Of a stretch of DNA of 64,000 nt, positions 40,233 to 51,566 are shown piece after piece. The notes under the pieces were generated by a model. It was not told the origin of the DNA. It ran no database searches and saw only the letters and a list, made by a program, of their open reading frames with translations. The stretch comes from Chitinophaga filiformis. Its GTDB lineage: Bacteria; Bacteroidota; Bacteroidia; Chitinophagales; Chitinophagaceae. Position 1 is the first letter of the stretch. Each line of letters begins with the position of its first letter. The stretch lies in the NCBI RefSeq assembly GCF_900102545.1, contig NZ_FNBN01000001.1:411633-475632 (forward strand). Direction: 5' to 3'. The translations under genes and the position numbers were made by a program.

Positions 40233-41189
40233 TTATTCTTCATGCTTCTTTAATATTACGACGGTATCTTTTTTCTCTACATCTGCATTGGTCATGAAAG
40301 CGATAGACGCCAGTACATTCTCTGCCGTTTCGCCTGTAAAAGTAGCCGTTACCGGCAATTGCAGCAAGGCCGCATCTGCAGTAACTTTTACATGATAAAT
40401 TACTTCAATGGTCTGCAATACTTCCGATAAAGGGATATCAGTAAATACCAGCTGCTGACGGGCGGCATCCGCTACATGTGCAGCGATCCTGAAGGGGACT
40501 TTTTCCTCCTGCTGCTCCAGTAGCATACCAGCCGACAATACCACACTATCCCGGCTGCTCCTGTCTGTTACCATGATCTGTCCTGTGTCAACATGTACAC
40601 GCAGCGCACCTTTCTTACCAGCCGCAAAATCTACCATAAAACGGGTGCCCAGTACTTTAATACTCCTCTTCCCCAGTTTTATTATAAACGGGCGAGCAGC
40701 ATCCGGCGTTACATTGAAGGTGGCTTTTCCTTCCAGGGACACTTCACGCTGTCTGCCGCCAAATCCTGCCAGTACCTGCAGCTGCGCCTTATCTTCCAGC
40801 TGAACGGTAGTACCGTCTTTCAGCTGTGCCACTACTGGTCCGGTAAACCGTTGCGTACGGCTATTACGGACTGTCAGCCATAACAGGCCCGTGCCGGCAG
40901 CAATCAGGATAACGGCAGCAGCCGTCCACCACTTACGCCATTTGTAGGTGACCACCTTTCCGCCCATTTTGGCGCTAAGGGACTGCCAGGCACGTTCTGT
41001 GTCAGCAGGTGTCACTACCATATGAGGCTGTTCCTGCAGCAACTTTTCAAGCGCCGACAACAGCCCGGGGTGATCAGGATCACTTTTCAGCCAGTCGTCT
41101 ACCCACTGGCGCTCAGCAACATCGGCCTCCCCCAGCAAATATTTACATAGCAAGGCATATAATGCCTCATCAGCATACAGTTTAGTCAT
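40233..41189 (-). CDS. fecR: FecR family anti-sigma factor
   Basis: From the ATG at 41189 (MTKLYADEALYALLCKYLLG) 318 residues. N-terminal ~80 residues bind sigma; a single helix near residues 90-110 (WWTAAAVILIAAGTGLLWLTV) crosses the inner membrane; the periplasmic part has the FecR domain (LKDGTTVQLEDKAQLQVLAGF, VLGTRFMVDFA) and ends in a secretin/TonB-short-N-like domain (VADAARQQLVFTDIPLSEVL). A longer frame to 41237 adds an untypical Cys-rich leader. It transmits the receptor's signal to the ECF sigma at 41670. Confidence 0.92.
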   Translation of the reverse strand: MTKLYADEALYALLCKYLLGEADVAERQWVDDWLKSDPDHPGLLSALEKLLQEQPHMVVTPADTERAWQSLSAKMGGKVVTYKWRKWWTAAAVILIAAGTGLLWLTVRNSRTQRFTGPVVAQLKDGTTVQLEDKAQLQVLAGFGGRQREVSLEGKATFNVTPDAARPFIIKLGKRSIKVLGTRFMVDFAAGKKGALRVHVDTGQIMVTDRSSRDSVVLSAGMLLEQQEEKVPFRIAAHVADAARQQLVFTDIPLSEVLQTIEVIYHVKVTADAALLQLPVTATFTGETAENVLASIAFMTNADVEKKDTVVILKKHEE

Positions 41190-47148: not shown

Positions 47149-50100
47149 TCAGAAATTCATGTTTACACCCACAGTAAATGTCCTAACAGAAGGATACTTA
47201 TCCCTGTCATCATTGCCAGGCGCCAGTCCCAGCCTGTTCACCTCAGGGTCTATACCCTTATACCCGGTGATGGTAAAAGTATTCAGCGTAGAAACATAGA
47301 CACGTGCGGAATGCATGTATTTTAGTTTCAGGTTCCGGAAATTGTATCCCAGTGTGATATTATCCACTTTCCAGAAATCGCCATTCTCCACATAGTAGCT
47401 GTTAAACTCCAGCGGCATGTCTTTACTTAATACCGCCTTACCGAATACCTTATCGTAAGCTGATTTTAAACGATTGTACTGCTGCAGGCCTGTGTTCTCA
47501 TAATACATGCGCTGAAAGTTCAGTATCTGATAGTCGAAAGCGCCACGCATAGTAATATTCAGATCAAACTGTTTATAGCGGAAAGTGTTGTTCCATCCGG
47601 CATAATACTTCGGAAGGCCATTCCCCAGTACTCGTTTGTCTTCGAACGCATGCTGGTAGCTGTCATAAGGCACGGGCTTTCCATCACGTCCTTCATAGAT
47701 CCATTTACCATCTTCAGAAATATCTACCACCTTGAAGCCATAGAAATCACCGATATGATCACCGATGTTCACGATATGTGTAAAGGTCTGGATCGGCTCA
47801 CCGGTACCACCGGTAGTAAAGTAGTTGTTGGTAGTTTTGTAGAGATTATTAGAAAGGCTGACCAGTTTATTGGTGTTGGTAGAGAAATTCACGCTGGAGG
47901 TCCATTCGAAATTCTTTGTCTTCACCGGAATAAAGTTCACCAATACTTCCAGGCCTTTATTTTCCATCTTACCTACGTTCGCACGGGTGGTAGGATACAG
48001 GTTTGGAGGACTAGGCACCTGGTAGTCATACAGCAATCCATTGATACGGCGGATGTAGTAATCCACGCTACCGCTGATCCTGCCGCTATGCATGGAAAAG
48101 TCTAATCCTGCATTGGTTTCATGCTTCTCTTCCCAGCGCAAGTCGGCATTAGGGTTCTGAGAAGGGCCCAGTGTCTGGATCCATACGCCATTTACATATA
48201 CATAGCTGCCGTAGTTCAGGATAGCCACACCGAGGAAAAGATCAGTAGGCTGTGTACCTGTAACGCCATAACCTACACGTAATTTCAGATCATCGAACAA
48301 TGTCTGACTTTTCATAAACGCCTCATTGCTGATACGCCATCCGGCAGAGATAGCCGGGAAGTTACCCCATGGTTGCTTCGTACCATACAACTGGCTGGCG
48401 GCTTCATGACGCAAACTGGCCATTAACAGGTAACGGTCATCATAACTATAAGTAGCCCTGCCGAAGAAACCAATGAGGTTTGTTTCTGTCTTATCACTGT
48501 ATTCCGGTGCCAGTCCTTCTTTTAATGCCTGTCCTATACCGATGTTGTTATAAGTAAAACGGTCTGTCGGGAAGTCCCAGTTCTGCATCCAGTGACTGTT
48601 GTACTCCCGCTCCTGGTAGCTGTATCCTGCCAGGGCTGTGAATTTATGTCGTCTGACATTAGCGGTGTATTGTGCGGTCAGCTCCATCAGCCTGTCCATG
48701 CTTTGCGTTGAGCCAACAGAGGCATAACCGTTCCTGCTGTCTCTCAAATTGGAGATATGCTTTTTGGTTTCCGAGTATCCTCTGTCTTCATTGTAGTGCG
48801 TATAAGAGAATAAGGCAGACAGCTTCAGTCCCTGTACTGGCAGCAAGGTCAGTGAACCATTCAGACGTGTATTCTGGGAAGTGTTCCGGCCATCGCTTTC
48901 CATAAGTCTTGACACCGGATTTTCGTAGTTAAACAGGCCTGTCTGTTCATACCAGTTCCCCAGTGAATCACGGAGCGGAGAAGTTGGATTACGGATGAGG
49001 GCCTGTCTGTAGGTATAACCATTAAAACTGAAACCATCGCCGGTAGTGGTATACCTGTTGTTGGCACTCAGCATACCCAGGTTTATGCGCAGTTTATCAT
49101 CCAGCATACTGTGGTTGATATCGATGCGACCGGTGAAGGTCCTATTGTCTGATTTCTTCATGATACCTTCCAGGGAGCGGTAGTTCGCATTCGCGAGATA
49201 ATTTGTCTTCGCATTACCACCCCTCATTGTCAGGTTATGTACATGTGTTAATGGCGTCTGTGATATTTCTTTTAACCAGTCAGTATTGGCGCCCTGGTCC
49301 CAGGAAGCGTCTCTGGTACCATCTGCGATCTGTTTCCGGTAATCTGCAGCTGTCAGCATATCTGGCTTGCGGGCAATGGTCTGTGTGCTGACATAGCCGC
49401 TATATTCCACAGAGTTGTTATAGGTTCCACTGGCCCTGCGGGTAGTGATAATGATCACACCATTGGTACCACGGGTACCATAGATAGCAGCGGCAGAACC
49501 GTCTTTTAATACATCCACGGATTCAATATCTTCGGGCGCGACGGTCTTCAGATCACCGGGGATACCGTCTATCAGTACTAAGGGGTTAGCGTTGGCTCCT
49601 AACAGGGTGGTATTGCCGCGCAACAGGATCTGTGAGCCGCTGGTAGGATCTCCACTGGGTGTACCGATGGAAAGTCCGGCTACTTTACCTTGCAGCAGCT
49701 GGCCGGCATCCAGCACATTCCCTTTTACGAAGCTTTCTGATTTTACTGTAGCAACAGCGCTGGTCAGGTCTCCTTTCCGCAGGCTGCCATAGCCTATTAC
49801 AACAACATCCGCCAGGGAGTTATCGCTCAAGGCCATCTGGATATTCAGCTGGCTACGGCCTCTCACGGCTATTTCCTGGGTGCGGTAACCGATATAGCTG
49901 ATCAGCAGTGTATCGGCCTCACTCCTTGCTTCGAGTGAGAAGGCGCCTTTCTCGTTGGTGATGGTACCGGCCCTTGACGATTTCACCACAATGCTCACCC
50001 CGGGTAATGGCTGGCCTTTTTCGTCGGTCACCATGCCTGTGATCACCTTGTCCATACCTACAGGCACGGGCACGCCTTTCGCCGCAGCCTGCATAGCGGC

Positions 50101-50505
50101 AGACATTGGCATTCTTTTAATAATGATATATTTTCCCTCCTGTACATAGAACAGGTCATGCGGAAGCAGTAACGCGTCCAGCACCTCTTTCAGTGAGCGT
50201 TCCTTGTTTTCCAGCGCAGGCACGGACGTATTGCCGGCCAGCGCGCCATCTACAACAAAGAGGAAAGGCGCCTGTGTTTCTATGCGTTTTAATACTTTAT
50301 CAAGTTTTCCTTCCCTGATATTCAGCTGCAACATCACGGTGTTCAGGTCCTGTCCGCTGGTATTACGGGCAATGAGCAACAACGTTGTTGTACACAGCAC
50401 TATCATGATCATGATCACTGTTCGCATTAGCTTAAACAAAAGGTCTGGTAAATAATGGTGGGTGATGCCCATAGGCTTCCCTGTCAAAATACCGTAGTAT
50501 TTCAT
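47149..50505 (-). CDS. susC: SusC/RagA TonB-linked outer membrane protein with STN domain
   Basis: 1118 residues from the ATG at 50505 (MKYYGILTGKPM). The frame extends 20 codons upstream, but the codons at 50505 fit the long basic leader of Chitinophaga-type SusC; the signal helix is MRTVIMIMIVLCTTTLLLIA. An STN domain (NIREGKLDKVLKRIETQA) is followed by a carboxypeptidase-like domain (ITGMVTDEKGQPLPGVSIVV) and a plug with VLKDGSAAAIYGTRG. It imports oligosaccharide with SusD, and its STN domain signals to the FecR/sigma pair encoded just upstream. Confidence 0.93.
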   Translation of the reverse strand: MKYYGILTGKPMGITHHYLPDLLFKLMRTVIMIMIVLCTTTLLLIARNTSGQDLNTVMLQLNIREGKLDKVLKRIETQAPFLFVVDGALAGNTSVPALENKERSLKEVLDALLLPHDLFYVQEGKYIIIKRMPMSAAMQAAAKGVPVPVGMDKVITGMVTDEKGQPLPGVSIVVKSSRAGTITNEKGAFSLEARSEADTLLISYIGYRTQEIAVRGRSQLNIQMALSDNSLADVVVIGYGSLRKGDLTSAVATVKSESFVKGNVLDAGQLLQGKVAGLSIGTPSGDPTSGSQILLRGNTTLLGANANPLVLIDGIPGDLKTVAPEDIESVDVLKDGSAAAIYGTRGTNGVIIITTRRASGTYNNSVEYSGYVSTQTIARKPDMLTAADYRKQIADGTRDASWDQGANTDWLKEISQTPLTHVHNLTMRGGNAKTNYLANANYRSLEGIMKKSDNRTFTGRIDINHSMLDDKLRINLGMLSANNRYTTTGDGFSFNGYTYRQALIRNPTSPLRDSLGNWYEQTGLFNYENPVSRLMESDGRNTSQNTRLNGSLTLLPVQGLKLSALFSYTHYNEDRGYSETKKHISNLRDSRNGYASVGSTQSMDRLMELTAQYTANVRRHKFTALAGYSYQEREYNSHWMQNWDFPTDRFTYNNIGIGQALKEGLAPEYSDKTETNLIGFFGRATYSYDDRYLLMASLRHEAASQLYGTKQPWGNFPAISAGWRISNEAFMKSQTLFDDLKLRVGYGVTGTQPTDLFLGVAILNYGSYVYVNGVWIQTLGPSQNPNADLRWEEKHETNAGLDFSMHSGRISGSVDYYIRRINGLLYDYQVPSPPNLYPTTRANVGKMENKGLEVLVNFIPVKTKNFEWTSSVNFSTNTNKLVSLSNNLYKTTNNYFTTGGTGEPIQTFTHIVNIGDHIGDFYGFKVVDISEDGKWIYEGRDGKPVPYDSYQHAFEDKRVLGNGLPKYYAGWNNTFRYKQFDLNITMRGAFDYQILNFQRMYYENTGLQQYNRLKSAYDKVFGKAVLSKDMPLEFNSYYVENGDFWKVDNITLGYNFRNLKLKYMHSARVYVSTLNTFTITGYKGIDPEVNRLGLAPGNDDRDKYPSVRTFTVGVNMNF

Positions 50506-50518
50506 ATCTTTAATTGCA

Positions 50519-50631
50519 TTTTGTATGATGTAATAGAATACAAAGCCGTAGCGCCTGCGTTGCATGTATGGTTTGCAGACTCTTATGCAGACAGCGCTAT
50601 GTTATCCTTTCCTTTCAGGAAAGGATTTTTT
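50519..50631 (+). ncRNA. candidate plus-strand antisense RNA between fecR and susC
   Basis: On the plus strand (opposite to the genes) a large stem (TAGCGC-CTGC / GCAG-ACA-GCGCTA, 50549-50599) is followed by ATCCTTTCC / GGAAAGGAT (50604-50612, 50618-50626) and a T run at 50626-50631: a clean intrinsic terminator with no plus-strand gene to end. A -7-like TATCTTTA (50505-50512) would give a transcript of about 110 bases. Known precedent: Bacteroides PULs carry short antisense RNAs at this exact place. The 5' end is an estimate. Confidence 0.5.
50604..50631 (+). terminator. orphan plus-strand intrinsic terminator
   Basis: Nine-base perfect arms, five-base loop TTTCA, and six T's directly after the stem. 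All annotated genes here are on the minus strand, where the hairpin would be preceded, not followed, by the T/A run. Confidence 0.8.
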
Positions 50632-50696
50632 ATGTGGTATTGCCGGGAAATGCTGTTGTTTGTTTCATAACGGGATTGCTTGATTTTTGTGAAATA

Positions 50697-51566
50697 TTAT
50701 TGGCACCCTTCTCCGCTGATATATACTTCTTTTTTATCCTGACTGATGCGGAACGTGGAATTGTTGATCTTACACAATAGTTCCAGTATTCTATCCATAG
50801 GTGTGTGTTCGTCAAAGCTGGCAATGAATGTGCACTTCTTCAGTGCATCGTTCTCAAAATGGAAAGCTACATTGTACTTCCTGCTTAGCATGTTTGCAAC
50901 GGATTCAAATGTTTCATTGTTCACTTCAAAACCTCCTTGTATCCAGGCGTGGTAGACAGTTGCATTGACCGTTCTTTCGGCGGTACTGTCTGTTGTTTCT
51001 TTCAGCGTGATCTGTTTATTGGCTGTCAGTATTGTAATATGTTTTCTTTCATCTTCCACCCGTATCTTTCCGGAAGCGACGGTAATAGCAGTTGGCTCGC
51101 CGCTATAGGCTTTAATATTGAACCTCGTACCCAGTACAGTTGTAGTGCTGCCGCCCGCTTTTACGACAAATGGCCGGGCAGCCTTTTTCACGTCGAAAAA
51201 CGCTTCACCACTGAGTGTAACTTCCCTGCTTTGTGGTCCGTCATTATATTGCAGCTTGCTGTCAGCATTCAGCCAAACGATGCTACTGTCGGGCAGTACG
51301 ATCTTGTTCTGCTGTTCCCTGGGTACGTATACGACAAGTTTCTTTTCCGCCTTCTTCGGATACAAAGCCCAGATCCCCGCGGCTATCATAACAGCTGCTG
51401 CCATCCACCATACGGAGGACAGACGTCGCCTCCTGGGATTGTCTTCATTCCTGACCAGATCCATTTCTTCCTTTCCGTACCATTGCATCAGGATGTTGAT
51501 CTCTTCGGCTGTGGCGGTGCCTGCCAGCCATTTGCGGGCAAGTTCGTGGATGTAATCGTCAGGCAT
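50697..51566 (-). CDS. FecR family anti-sigma factor of the GH127 PUL
   Basis: A 289-residue protein. N-terminal ~55-residue sigma-binding part (MPDDYIHELARKWLAGTATAEEI), a membrane helix (WWMAAAVMIAAGIWALY), and the periplasmic FecR domain (KIVLPDSSIVWLNADSKLQY, TLSGEAFFDV, TVLGTRFNIKAYSG). It ends with the short DUF4974-type segment FEVNNETFESVANMLSRKYNV ... CTFIASFDEHTPMDRILELL. It receives the signal from the SusC STN domain and controls the sigma encoded 70 bases upstream. Confidence 0.93.
   Translation of the reverse strand: MPDDYIHELARKWLAGTATAEEINILMQWYGKEEMDLVRNEDNPRRRRLSSVWWMAAAVMIAAGIWALYPKKAEKKLVVYVPREQQNKIVLPDSSIVWLNADSKLQYNDGPQSREVTLSGEAFFDVKKAARPFVVKAGGSTTTVLGTRFNIKAYSGEPTAITVASGKIRVEDERKHITILTANKQITLKETTDSTAERTVNATVYHAWIQGGFEVNNETFESVANMLSRKYNVAFHFENDALKKCTFIASFDEHTPMDRILELLCKINNSTFRISQDKKEVYISGEGCQ

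What the first reader, a model, noticed from the sequence alone, without database searches (positions are those of the whole stretch)
50519..50631. Candidate antisense small RNA between the anti-sigma gene and susC
A textbook intrinsic terminator (nine-base perfect stem, six T's) is oriented on the plus strand, opposite to every gene nearby. A larger stem lies just before it, and a weak -7-like box about 115 bases before the end. Bacteroides PULs are known to carry short antisense RNAs (DonS-type) at this place that repress susC; I know of no described case in a Chitinophaga-type GH127 PUL. The orientation and position are seen; transcription is inferred. If real it would be transcribed from near the susC start and regulate the susC leader.
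Basis: partly seen in the sequence, partly recalled or inferred. Interest (0 to 1): 0.7.

Follow-up and report, generated by a model that had tools for sequence, protein, structure and literature searches.

The report
Antisense RNA gene at susC start
Between the anti-sigma gene and the sugar-importer gene susC of a Chitinophaga bacterium, a terminator faces against the genes and a promoter-like box overlaps the susC start codon, which together predict a short antisense RNA that would likely hold the importer down; the same pair of signals recurs at many such junctions in this genome and in other Bacteroidota.

Summary
A plus-strand intrinsic terminator (50604-50631) lies between fecR and susC of an ECF-sigma/FecR/SusC/SusD/GH127 locus, opposite to these genes; a larger hairpin precedes it (50549-50599). 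The predicted RNA is about 113 nt (50519-50631).

It is not isolated. In this genome 22 of 32 fecR-susC gaps of at least 80 bases carry an antisense-directed terminator and 3 a sense-directed one; control gaps give 18 and 22 of 79. At the 24 terminator junctions the strict box TAnnTTTG occurs 13 times antisense, always over an ATG at or near the susC start, and once sense. Similar excess appears in the same family, in C. pinensis and across Bacteroidota.

The layout matches DonS-type PUL antisense RNAs of Bacteroides. Transcription and repression are inferred. The terminator hairpin is degenerate or absent in 9 of 18 orthologs, where a slightly more T-rich tract follows the preceding hairpin. 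A conserved 12-codon sense-strand ORF is a separate feature.

The parts
50505..50512 (+). predicted -7 promoter element of the antisense RNA, TATCTTTA (7 of 8 to TAnnTTTG), overlapping the susC start codon (CAT on plus, 50503-50505)
   Evidence: invariant in 18 of 18 orthologs; the strict form sits at the like place at 13 of 24 terminator junctions of the genome, this one not among them
50486..50512 (+). conserved block AAAATACCGNAGTATTTCATATCTTTA up to and including the -7 box; it also encodes the susC start; no clear -33 element
   Evidence: one variable column in 18 sequences
50519..50631 (+). predicted antisense RNA, about 113 nt; both ends inferred from box and terminator
50519..50545 (+). 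hairpin P2 near the predicted 5' end (TTTTGTA..TACAAAG)
50549..50599 (+). hairpin P3 (TAGCGC..TGCAT / ATGCA..GCGCTA) with invariant loop GTTTGCAGAC; possible alternative terminator in orthologs without P4
50604..50631 (+). intrinsic terminator P4, directed against the neighbouring genes
47149..50505 (-). susC (TonB-dependent transporter), presumed target; start taken at 50505 (the longest frame opens at 50565, but the orthologs differ by one base of frame upstream)
   Evidence: Pfam Plug and beta-barrel domains; shared MKY.GIL start
50697..51566 (-). FecR anti-sigma gene
   Evidence: PF04773 and PF16344
51637..52224 (-). ECF sigma factor gene
   Evidence: PF04542 and PF08281
45513..47129 (-). 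susD
   Evidence: PF07980 and PF14322
43499..45595 (-). GH127 beta-L-arabinofuranosidase gene
   Evidence: PF07944

Best explanation
The sequence between fecR and susC carries a promoter-like box over the susC start codon and, about 120 bases on, a terminator facing against the genes, which together predict a DonS-type antisense RNA of about 113 nt that would likely repress susC. Shown by calls: the terminator and its direction, the box, their recurrence at other fecR-susC junctions, and the conservation of box and hairpin P3 in 18 of 18 orthologs. Inferred: RNA polymerase with the housekeeping sigma factor starts near 50519 on the plus strand and stops near 50631. Inferred: the RNA is complementary to the susC leader (14 to 126 bases before the ATG), so when the sugar is absent it pairs with, or is made in collision with, the little susC mRNA that is made and keeps it low. 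Inferred: because the antisense promoter lies on the susC start codon, strong ECF-driven transcription of susC would run through and silence it, so the two transcripts would tend to exclude each other and sharpen the switch.
For: Directed terminator and box present. Own genome, fecR-susC gaps of at least 80 bases: antisense terminators 22 of 32, sense 3 of 32; control tandem gaps 18 and 22 of 79 (Fisher 8.7e-6 for antisense). Relaxed start-codon box: 17 of 24 terminator junctions, 2 of 26 others, 2 of 147 controls; within gaps of at least 80 bases 16 of 22 against 1 of 10. Strict TAnnTTTG in the 24 terminator junctions: 13 antisense, each over an ATG, 1 sense; in 147 controls 22 antisense, 56 sense. 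Box-to-terminator distance 72-154 bases, median 99, in 17 junctions, near the 78-128 nt stated for the DonS family (passage of PMC7366714). Gaps of at least 80 bases elsewhere: same family 12 of 18 antisense, 1 sense; C. pinensis YS-16 12 of 17, 1 sense; named loci across Bacteroidota 21 of 37, 0 sense. Core identity to the own sequence is 82-98% in the orthologs while FecR identity falls to 57%. Plus strand folds 7.5 kcal/mol better than minus.
Against: No transcript has been seen; the one C. pinensis RNA-seq paper that I opened states that its data were unstranded (passage of PMC11497827). The box here is 7 of 8 and no -33 element was recognised. The terminator hairpin is degenerate or absent in 9 of 18 orthologs. 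6 of 22 long terminator junctions lack the box, and in the family sample 3 of 9 boxes lack a terminator. Covariation is uninformative. Weaker samples: best FecR loci of 23 further Chitinophaga genomes 6 antisense, 2 sense, 4 with a box, any gap; phylum sample 4 of 8 antisense, 1 sense; Bacteroides pyogenes 3 of 8 antisense, 1 sense, 1 box. The near-invariance of the core is more than a purely cis-pairing RNA needs.
Confidence: 0.72

Rival explanations
1. The conserved element works in the sense strand: the susC leader has a 12-codon leader peptide (minus strand, 50668-50630) followed by hairpins, and translation of the peptide would control folding of the susC leader; the plus-strand terminator shape is a by-product.
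For: ATG, length (12 codons) and a stop are kept in 18 of 18 orthologs, and 9 of 14 variable columns in the closer 12 are third codon positions (binomial 0.017). At the susC start the stem AAATAC/GTATTT closes a loop that reads U-N-C-G in the sense RNA in all 18, N being A, C or G.
Against: Over all 18 orthologs the codon-position bias is gone (third positions 11 of 27 variable columns). It does not explain why terminators point antisense at the other junctions, nor the antisense-only -7 boxes. The scan lists no sense-directed terminator in 50500-50700. The sense fold is weaker.
Confidence: 0.12
2. There is no dedicated small RNA: the terminator only stops stray antisense transcription coming out of susC, protecting fecR and the sigma gene.
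For: Would also give antisense-directed terminators at this place; the box at this locus is imperfect, and some terminator junctions have no box (6 of 22 long gaps).
Against: Co-occurrence of terminator and start-codon box (16 of 22 against 1 of 10 in long gaps), all 13 strict boxes over an ATG, and the conservation of box and body between them.
Confidence: 0.1
3. The conserved block is DNA-level control of susC (ECF promoter or operator) and the hairpins matter only as DNA or mRNA structure.
For: The core of about 118 bases is nearly invariant and the sense promoter of susC was not located.
Against: Direction and T tract of the terminator, and its recurrence with unrelated stem sequences at other junctions.
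Confidence: 0.06

Closest known systems
DonS and the PUL-associated cis-antisense RNAs of Bacteroides (B. fragilis; ten, later 32, in B. thetaiotaomicron)
   Same: Place and direction (divergently encoded to a susC homolog), predicted size within 78-128 nt, expected repression of susC (passages of PMC7366714 and PMC10994844).
   Different: Another class of Bacteroidota, a locus with a GH127 gene, transcription not shown. Whether the DonS promoter also overlaps the susC start codon could not be compared: the DonS paper (Cao et al. 2016) is not held.
FopS / GibS small RNAs of B. thetaiotaomicron
   Same: Small RNAs with a terminator hairpin; FopS acts on susC translation start regions (passages of PMC11697453).
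   Different: Fourteen FopS paralogs with a shared seed, nine of them intergenic and four antisense; the present element occurs once in its genome and matches no Rfam family.
Leader-peptide attenuators (general class, recalled)
   Same: A short conserved ORF lies upstream in the susC leader.
   Different: No sense-directed terminator is listed after it.

Membership tests
DonS-type PUL antisense RNA | encoded on the strand opposite to a susC homolog, divergently from it | tested here: met
   terminator on plus, susC on minus; predicted 5' end beside the susC start
DonS-type PUL antisense RNA | length 78-128 nt (passage of PMC7366714) | tested here: met
   predicted about 113 nt from box and terminator; both ends inferred
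DonS-type PUL antisense RNA | PUL with ECF sigma and anti-sigma genes upstream of susC (that this is typical is recalled) | tested here: met
   Pfam
DonS-type PUL antisense RNA | transcribed | not testable with these tools
   no reads available; the RNA-seq paper opened is unstranded
DonS-type PUL antisense RNA | represses the cognate susC | not testable with these tools
   needs a deletion or promoter mutant
DonS-type PUL antisense RNA | housekeeping -7 box TAnnTTTG (motif recalled; the paper reports the canonical promoter at 52% of B. thetaiotaomicron cis-antisense RNAs) | tested here: inconclusive
   TATCTTTA here, 7 of 8; strict at 13 of 24 sister junctions
FopS | match to the Rfam covariance model | tested here: inconclusive
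   no Rfam match at gathering score in the window and none to FopS at E up to 5 in 50400-50760; the paper says the family was deposited, I did not check that this release holds it

The most novel reading that the evidence does not exclude
Long fecR-susC junctions of Bacteroidota are by default a two-gene unit: an antisense RNA gene whose promoter is built into the susC start codon and whose terminator sits about 100 bases upstream. The susC start codon and the antisense -7 box share bases, so transcription of importer and antisense RNA exclude each other. This would be an ancient, phylum-wide layer of glycan-uptake control, so far described, as far as I found, only in Bacteroides.
Probability: 0.4. 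Interest if true: 0.78.

Novelty: new member of a known kind. Interest (0 to 1): 0.6.

Why it matters
Soil Chitinophaga carry dozens of ECF/FecR-linked sugar importers (63 FecR loci were examined in this genome). If most of the long junctions encode an antisense RNA, then RNA-level brakes on glycan uptake are not a gut Bacteroides speciality but a general device of the phylum. It gives a simple sequence rule (antisense terminator about 100 bases before susC plus TAnnTTTG over the start codon) by which such RNAs can be annotated and tested.

Tried and rejected
Covariation as strand proof: three hairpins counted on 18 orthologs (17 distinct rows); stems hardly vary, and 4 of 5 measures are reached by 90-340 of 500 shuffles, the fifth (cells paired) by 8. 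U.G pairs on plus that would be C.A on minus are somewhat more frequent than the reverse, but by few events, and the degenerate P4 rows are partly misaligned; not used as proof.

Trans targets through the invariant loop: GGTTTGCAGACT occurs twice in the genome, once here; the second place was not followed. Shared sense-promoter motif upstream of the terminators: nothing convincing (GTTATG 3 of 24 against 2 of 79 controls). Rfam: nothing. First alignments of the junctions took the wrong strand or side and were redone.

Survey details. One search lists 74 FecR_C matches; 11 lie in long SusC-like frames and were left out, 63 were used (L031-L093; one, L093, is below the Pfam cut-off; L042 is this locus). 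Of these 5 had no next gene and 1 a gap of 630; 57 had a next gene within 350 bases and 50 a gap of 20-350. A few next genes do not look like SusC. A looser scan gave 31 of 57 antisense and 12 sense, ten shuffles 9-20 and 2-8. Controls: 151 tandem gaps found by a crude ORF caller of my own in the window and 20 stretches of 20 kb; 4 followed by a TonB-like protein were dropped. The 13 strict boxes lie over the first predicted start in 9, over the first ATG of a frame that opens earlier with GTG or TTG in 3 (L032-L034), and over the tenth codon in L043; 25 of 29 fetched family loci given (L157-L160 left out, their strand was not listed), 5 without a next gene, one of the rest (L132) of the same genus; 27 phylum loci, 3 without a next gene; phylum result for gaps of at least 80 bases: 4 of 8 antisense, 1 sense, 2 with a box; 70 loci (L198-L267), 2 without a next gene; two are Chitinophaga; 30 loci of 61 matches, 5 without a next gene; L284 is the ortholog of this locus; 14 of 18 loci given, 3 without a next gene.

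Papers: PMC7366714, PMC10994844, PMC11697453 and PMC11497827 seen as passages; PMC9723704 as passages and section 18; Cao et al. 2016 only as a reference entry and as described by others; all other papers as search listings.

Full report
What is there. The window lies in an 8.6-Mb genome whose relatives at this locus are species of Chitinophaga (C. ginsengisoli, C. filiformis, C. pinensis YS-16, C. rhizophila, C. silvisoli and others; one is a metagenome bin labelled Flavihumibacter, one is labelled [Flexibacter]). On the minus strand stand an ECF sigma gene, a FecR anti-sigma gene, susC, susD and a GH127 beta-L-arabinofuranosidase gene. Between fecR and susC, on the plus strand, is a terminator with 9-10 perfect pairs and a T run (50604-50631), z -3.7, preceded by a longer hairpin at 50549-50599.

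The promoter. By comparison with sister junctions the likely -7 element is TATCTTTA at 50505-50512, whose first base is the last base of CAT, the susC start codon read on the plus strand. It is invariant in 18 of 18 orthologs. No clear -33 element was seen in the 17 aligned boxes. That TAnnTTTG is the housekeeping -7 motif of Bacteroidota is recalled.

Orthologs. A DNA search with 50480-50606 finds the element once each in 18 of 79 genomes of the genus, own genome included. The stretch with box, P2 and P3 is 82-98% identical to the own sequence, although FecR identity falls to 57%. The terminator hairpin P4 is less stable in evolution: strict in 8 of 18, borderline in L104, degenerate in L099, L100, L105 and L106, absent in L107-L111. 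In those nine the P3 hairpin (-21 to -23 kcal/mol) is followed by 5-6 T in 8 bases, against 4 (5 in L097) in the other nine, a small difference. That P3 takes over as terminator is inference. In the ten named orthologs P4 is strict in 5 and the box present in 10.

A genome-wide pattern. I scanned the junctions behind 63 FecR loci of this genome. With a strict hairpin-plus-T definition, 24 of 50 gaps of 20-350 bases have an antisense-directed terminator and 3 a sense-directed one; 147 control gaps between genes in tandem have 20 and 24. For gaps of at least 80 bases: 22 and 3 of 32 against 18 and 22 of 79 (Fisher 8.7e-6 for antisense). The relaxed box ([CT]AAANNTATG in sense) is found at 17 of the 24 terminator junctions, 2 of the 26 others and 2 of 147 controls; in long gaps 16 of 22 against 1 of 10. 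Strict TAnnTTTG occurs 13 times on the antisense strand of the 24 terminator junctions, each time over an ATG, and once on the sense strand; control gaps have 22 antisense and 56 sense. Of the 13, nine lie over the first predicted start, three over the first ATG of the frame and one over its tenth codon. This locus has the relaxed, not the strict, box. So at these junctions the housekeeping-type box is on the wrong strand for susC, as expected if susC has an ECF promoter and the antisense RNA a housekeeping one. Distance from box to terminator end: 72-154, median 99, in 17 junctions; 120 here.

Beyond the genome, for gaps of at least 80 bases. C. pinensis YS-16: 12, 1 of 17, 10 with the box. 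Named loci from many Bacteroidota groups (Pedobacter, Sphingobacterium, Algoriphagus, Emticicia, Aquimarina, Prolixibacteraceae and others): 21, 0 of 37, 15 with the box, 11 with both. Weaker: a phylum sample 4, 1 of 8, best FecR loci of 23 other Chitinophaga genomes 6, 2 of 23, any gap, Bacteroides pyogenes 3, 1 of 8. These samples overlap in kinship and are not independent trials.

Mechanism. The predicted RNA is complementary to about 113 bases of the susC leader, ending 14 bases before the ATG. In B. fragilis and B. thetaiotaomicron RNAs of this layout exist (passages); one was shown to repress its locus, while later data found both anticorrelated and correlated pairs (passage of PMC10994844). 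I infer repression by pairing with the leader or by collision, and mutual exclusion because the antisense promoter lies on the susC start.

Novelty. Searches of the held library for antisense RNAs at PULs outside Bacteroides listed nothing relevant (two searches listed 20 of 144 and 20 of 172 papers). A Flavobacterium paper mentions the Bacteroides case as a starting point for similar work (section 18 of PMC9723704). I file it as a new member of a known kind; that the box overlaps the start codon may be new, but I could not check the original DonS paper.

Noticed in passing
window 50630-50668, minus strand: A 12-codon ORF (MKQTTAFPGNTT*) between fecR and susC; start, length and a stop kept in 18 of 18 orthologs. 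In the closer 12, 9 of 14 variable columns are third codon positions; over all 18 only 11 of 27. Possibly a translated leader peptide.
   Followed up: partly
window 50487-50502, minus strand: Right after the susC ATG the sense mRNA can form AAAUAC-UNCG-GUAUUU, a C(UNCG)G tetraloop (class recalled); the N is A, C or G in different orthologs (changing the fourth amino acid) while the rest is invariant.
   Followed up: no
window 50549-50599: The loop sequence GTTTGCAGAC is invariant in 18 orthologs, more than pairing in cis needs; a 12-base form occurs at one other place in the genome, L317.
   Followed up: no
L031-L093 (own genome), L132-L156: Several antisense terminators share a stem and loop of the kind GCCGGAAGTGTTGC..GCTTCCGGTTTTT, also in other genera, as if paralogous.
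   Followed up: no
window about 40254-40451, minus strand: A second FecR_C match lies in the window with a gap of only 20 bases to its next gene and no antisense terminator in the strict scan (L084).
   Followed up: no
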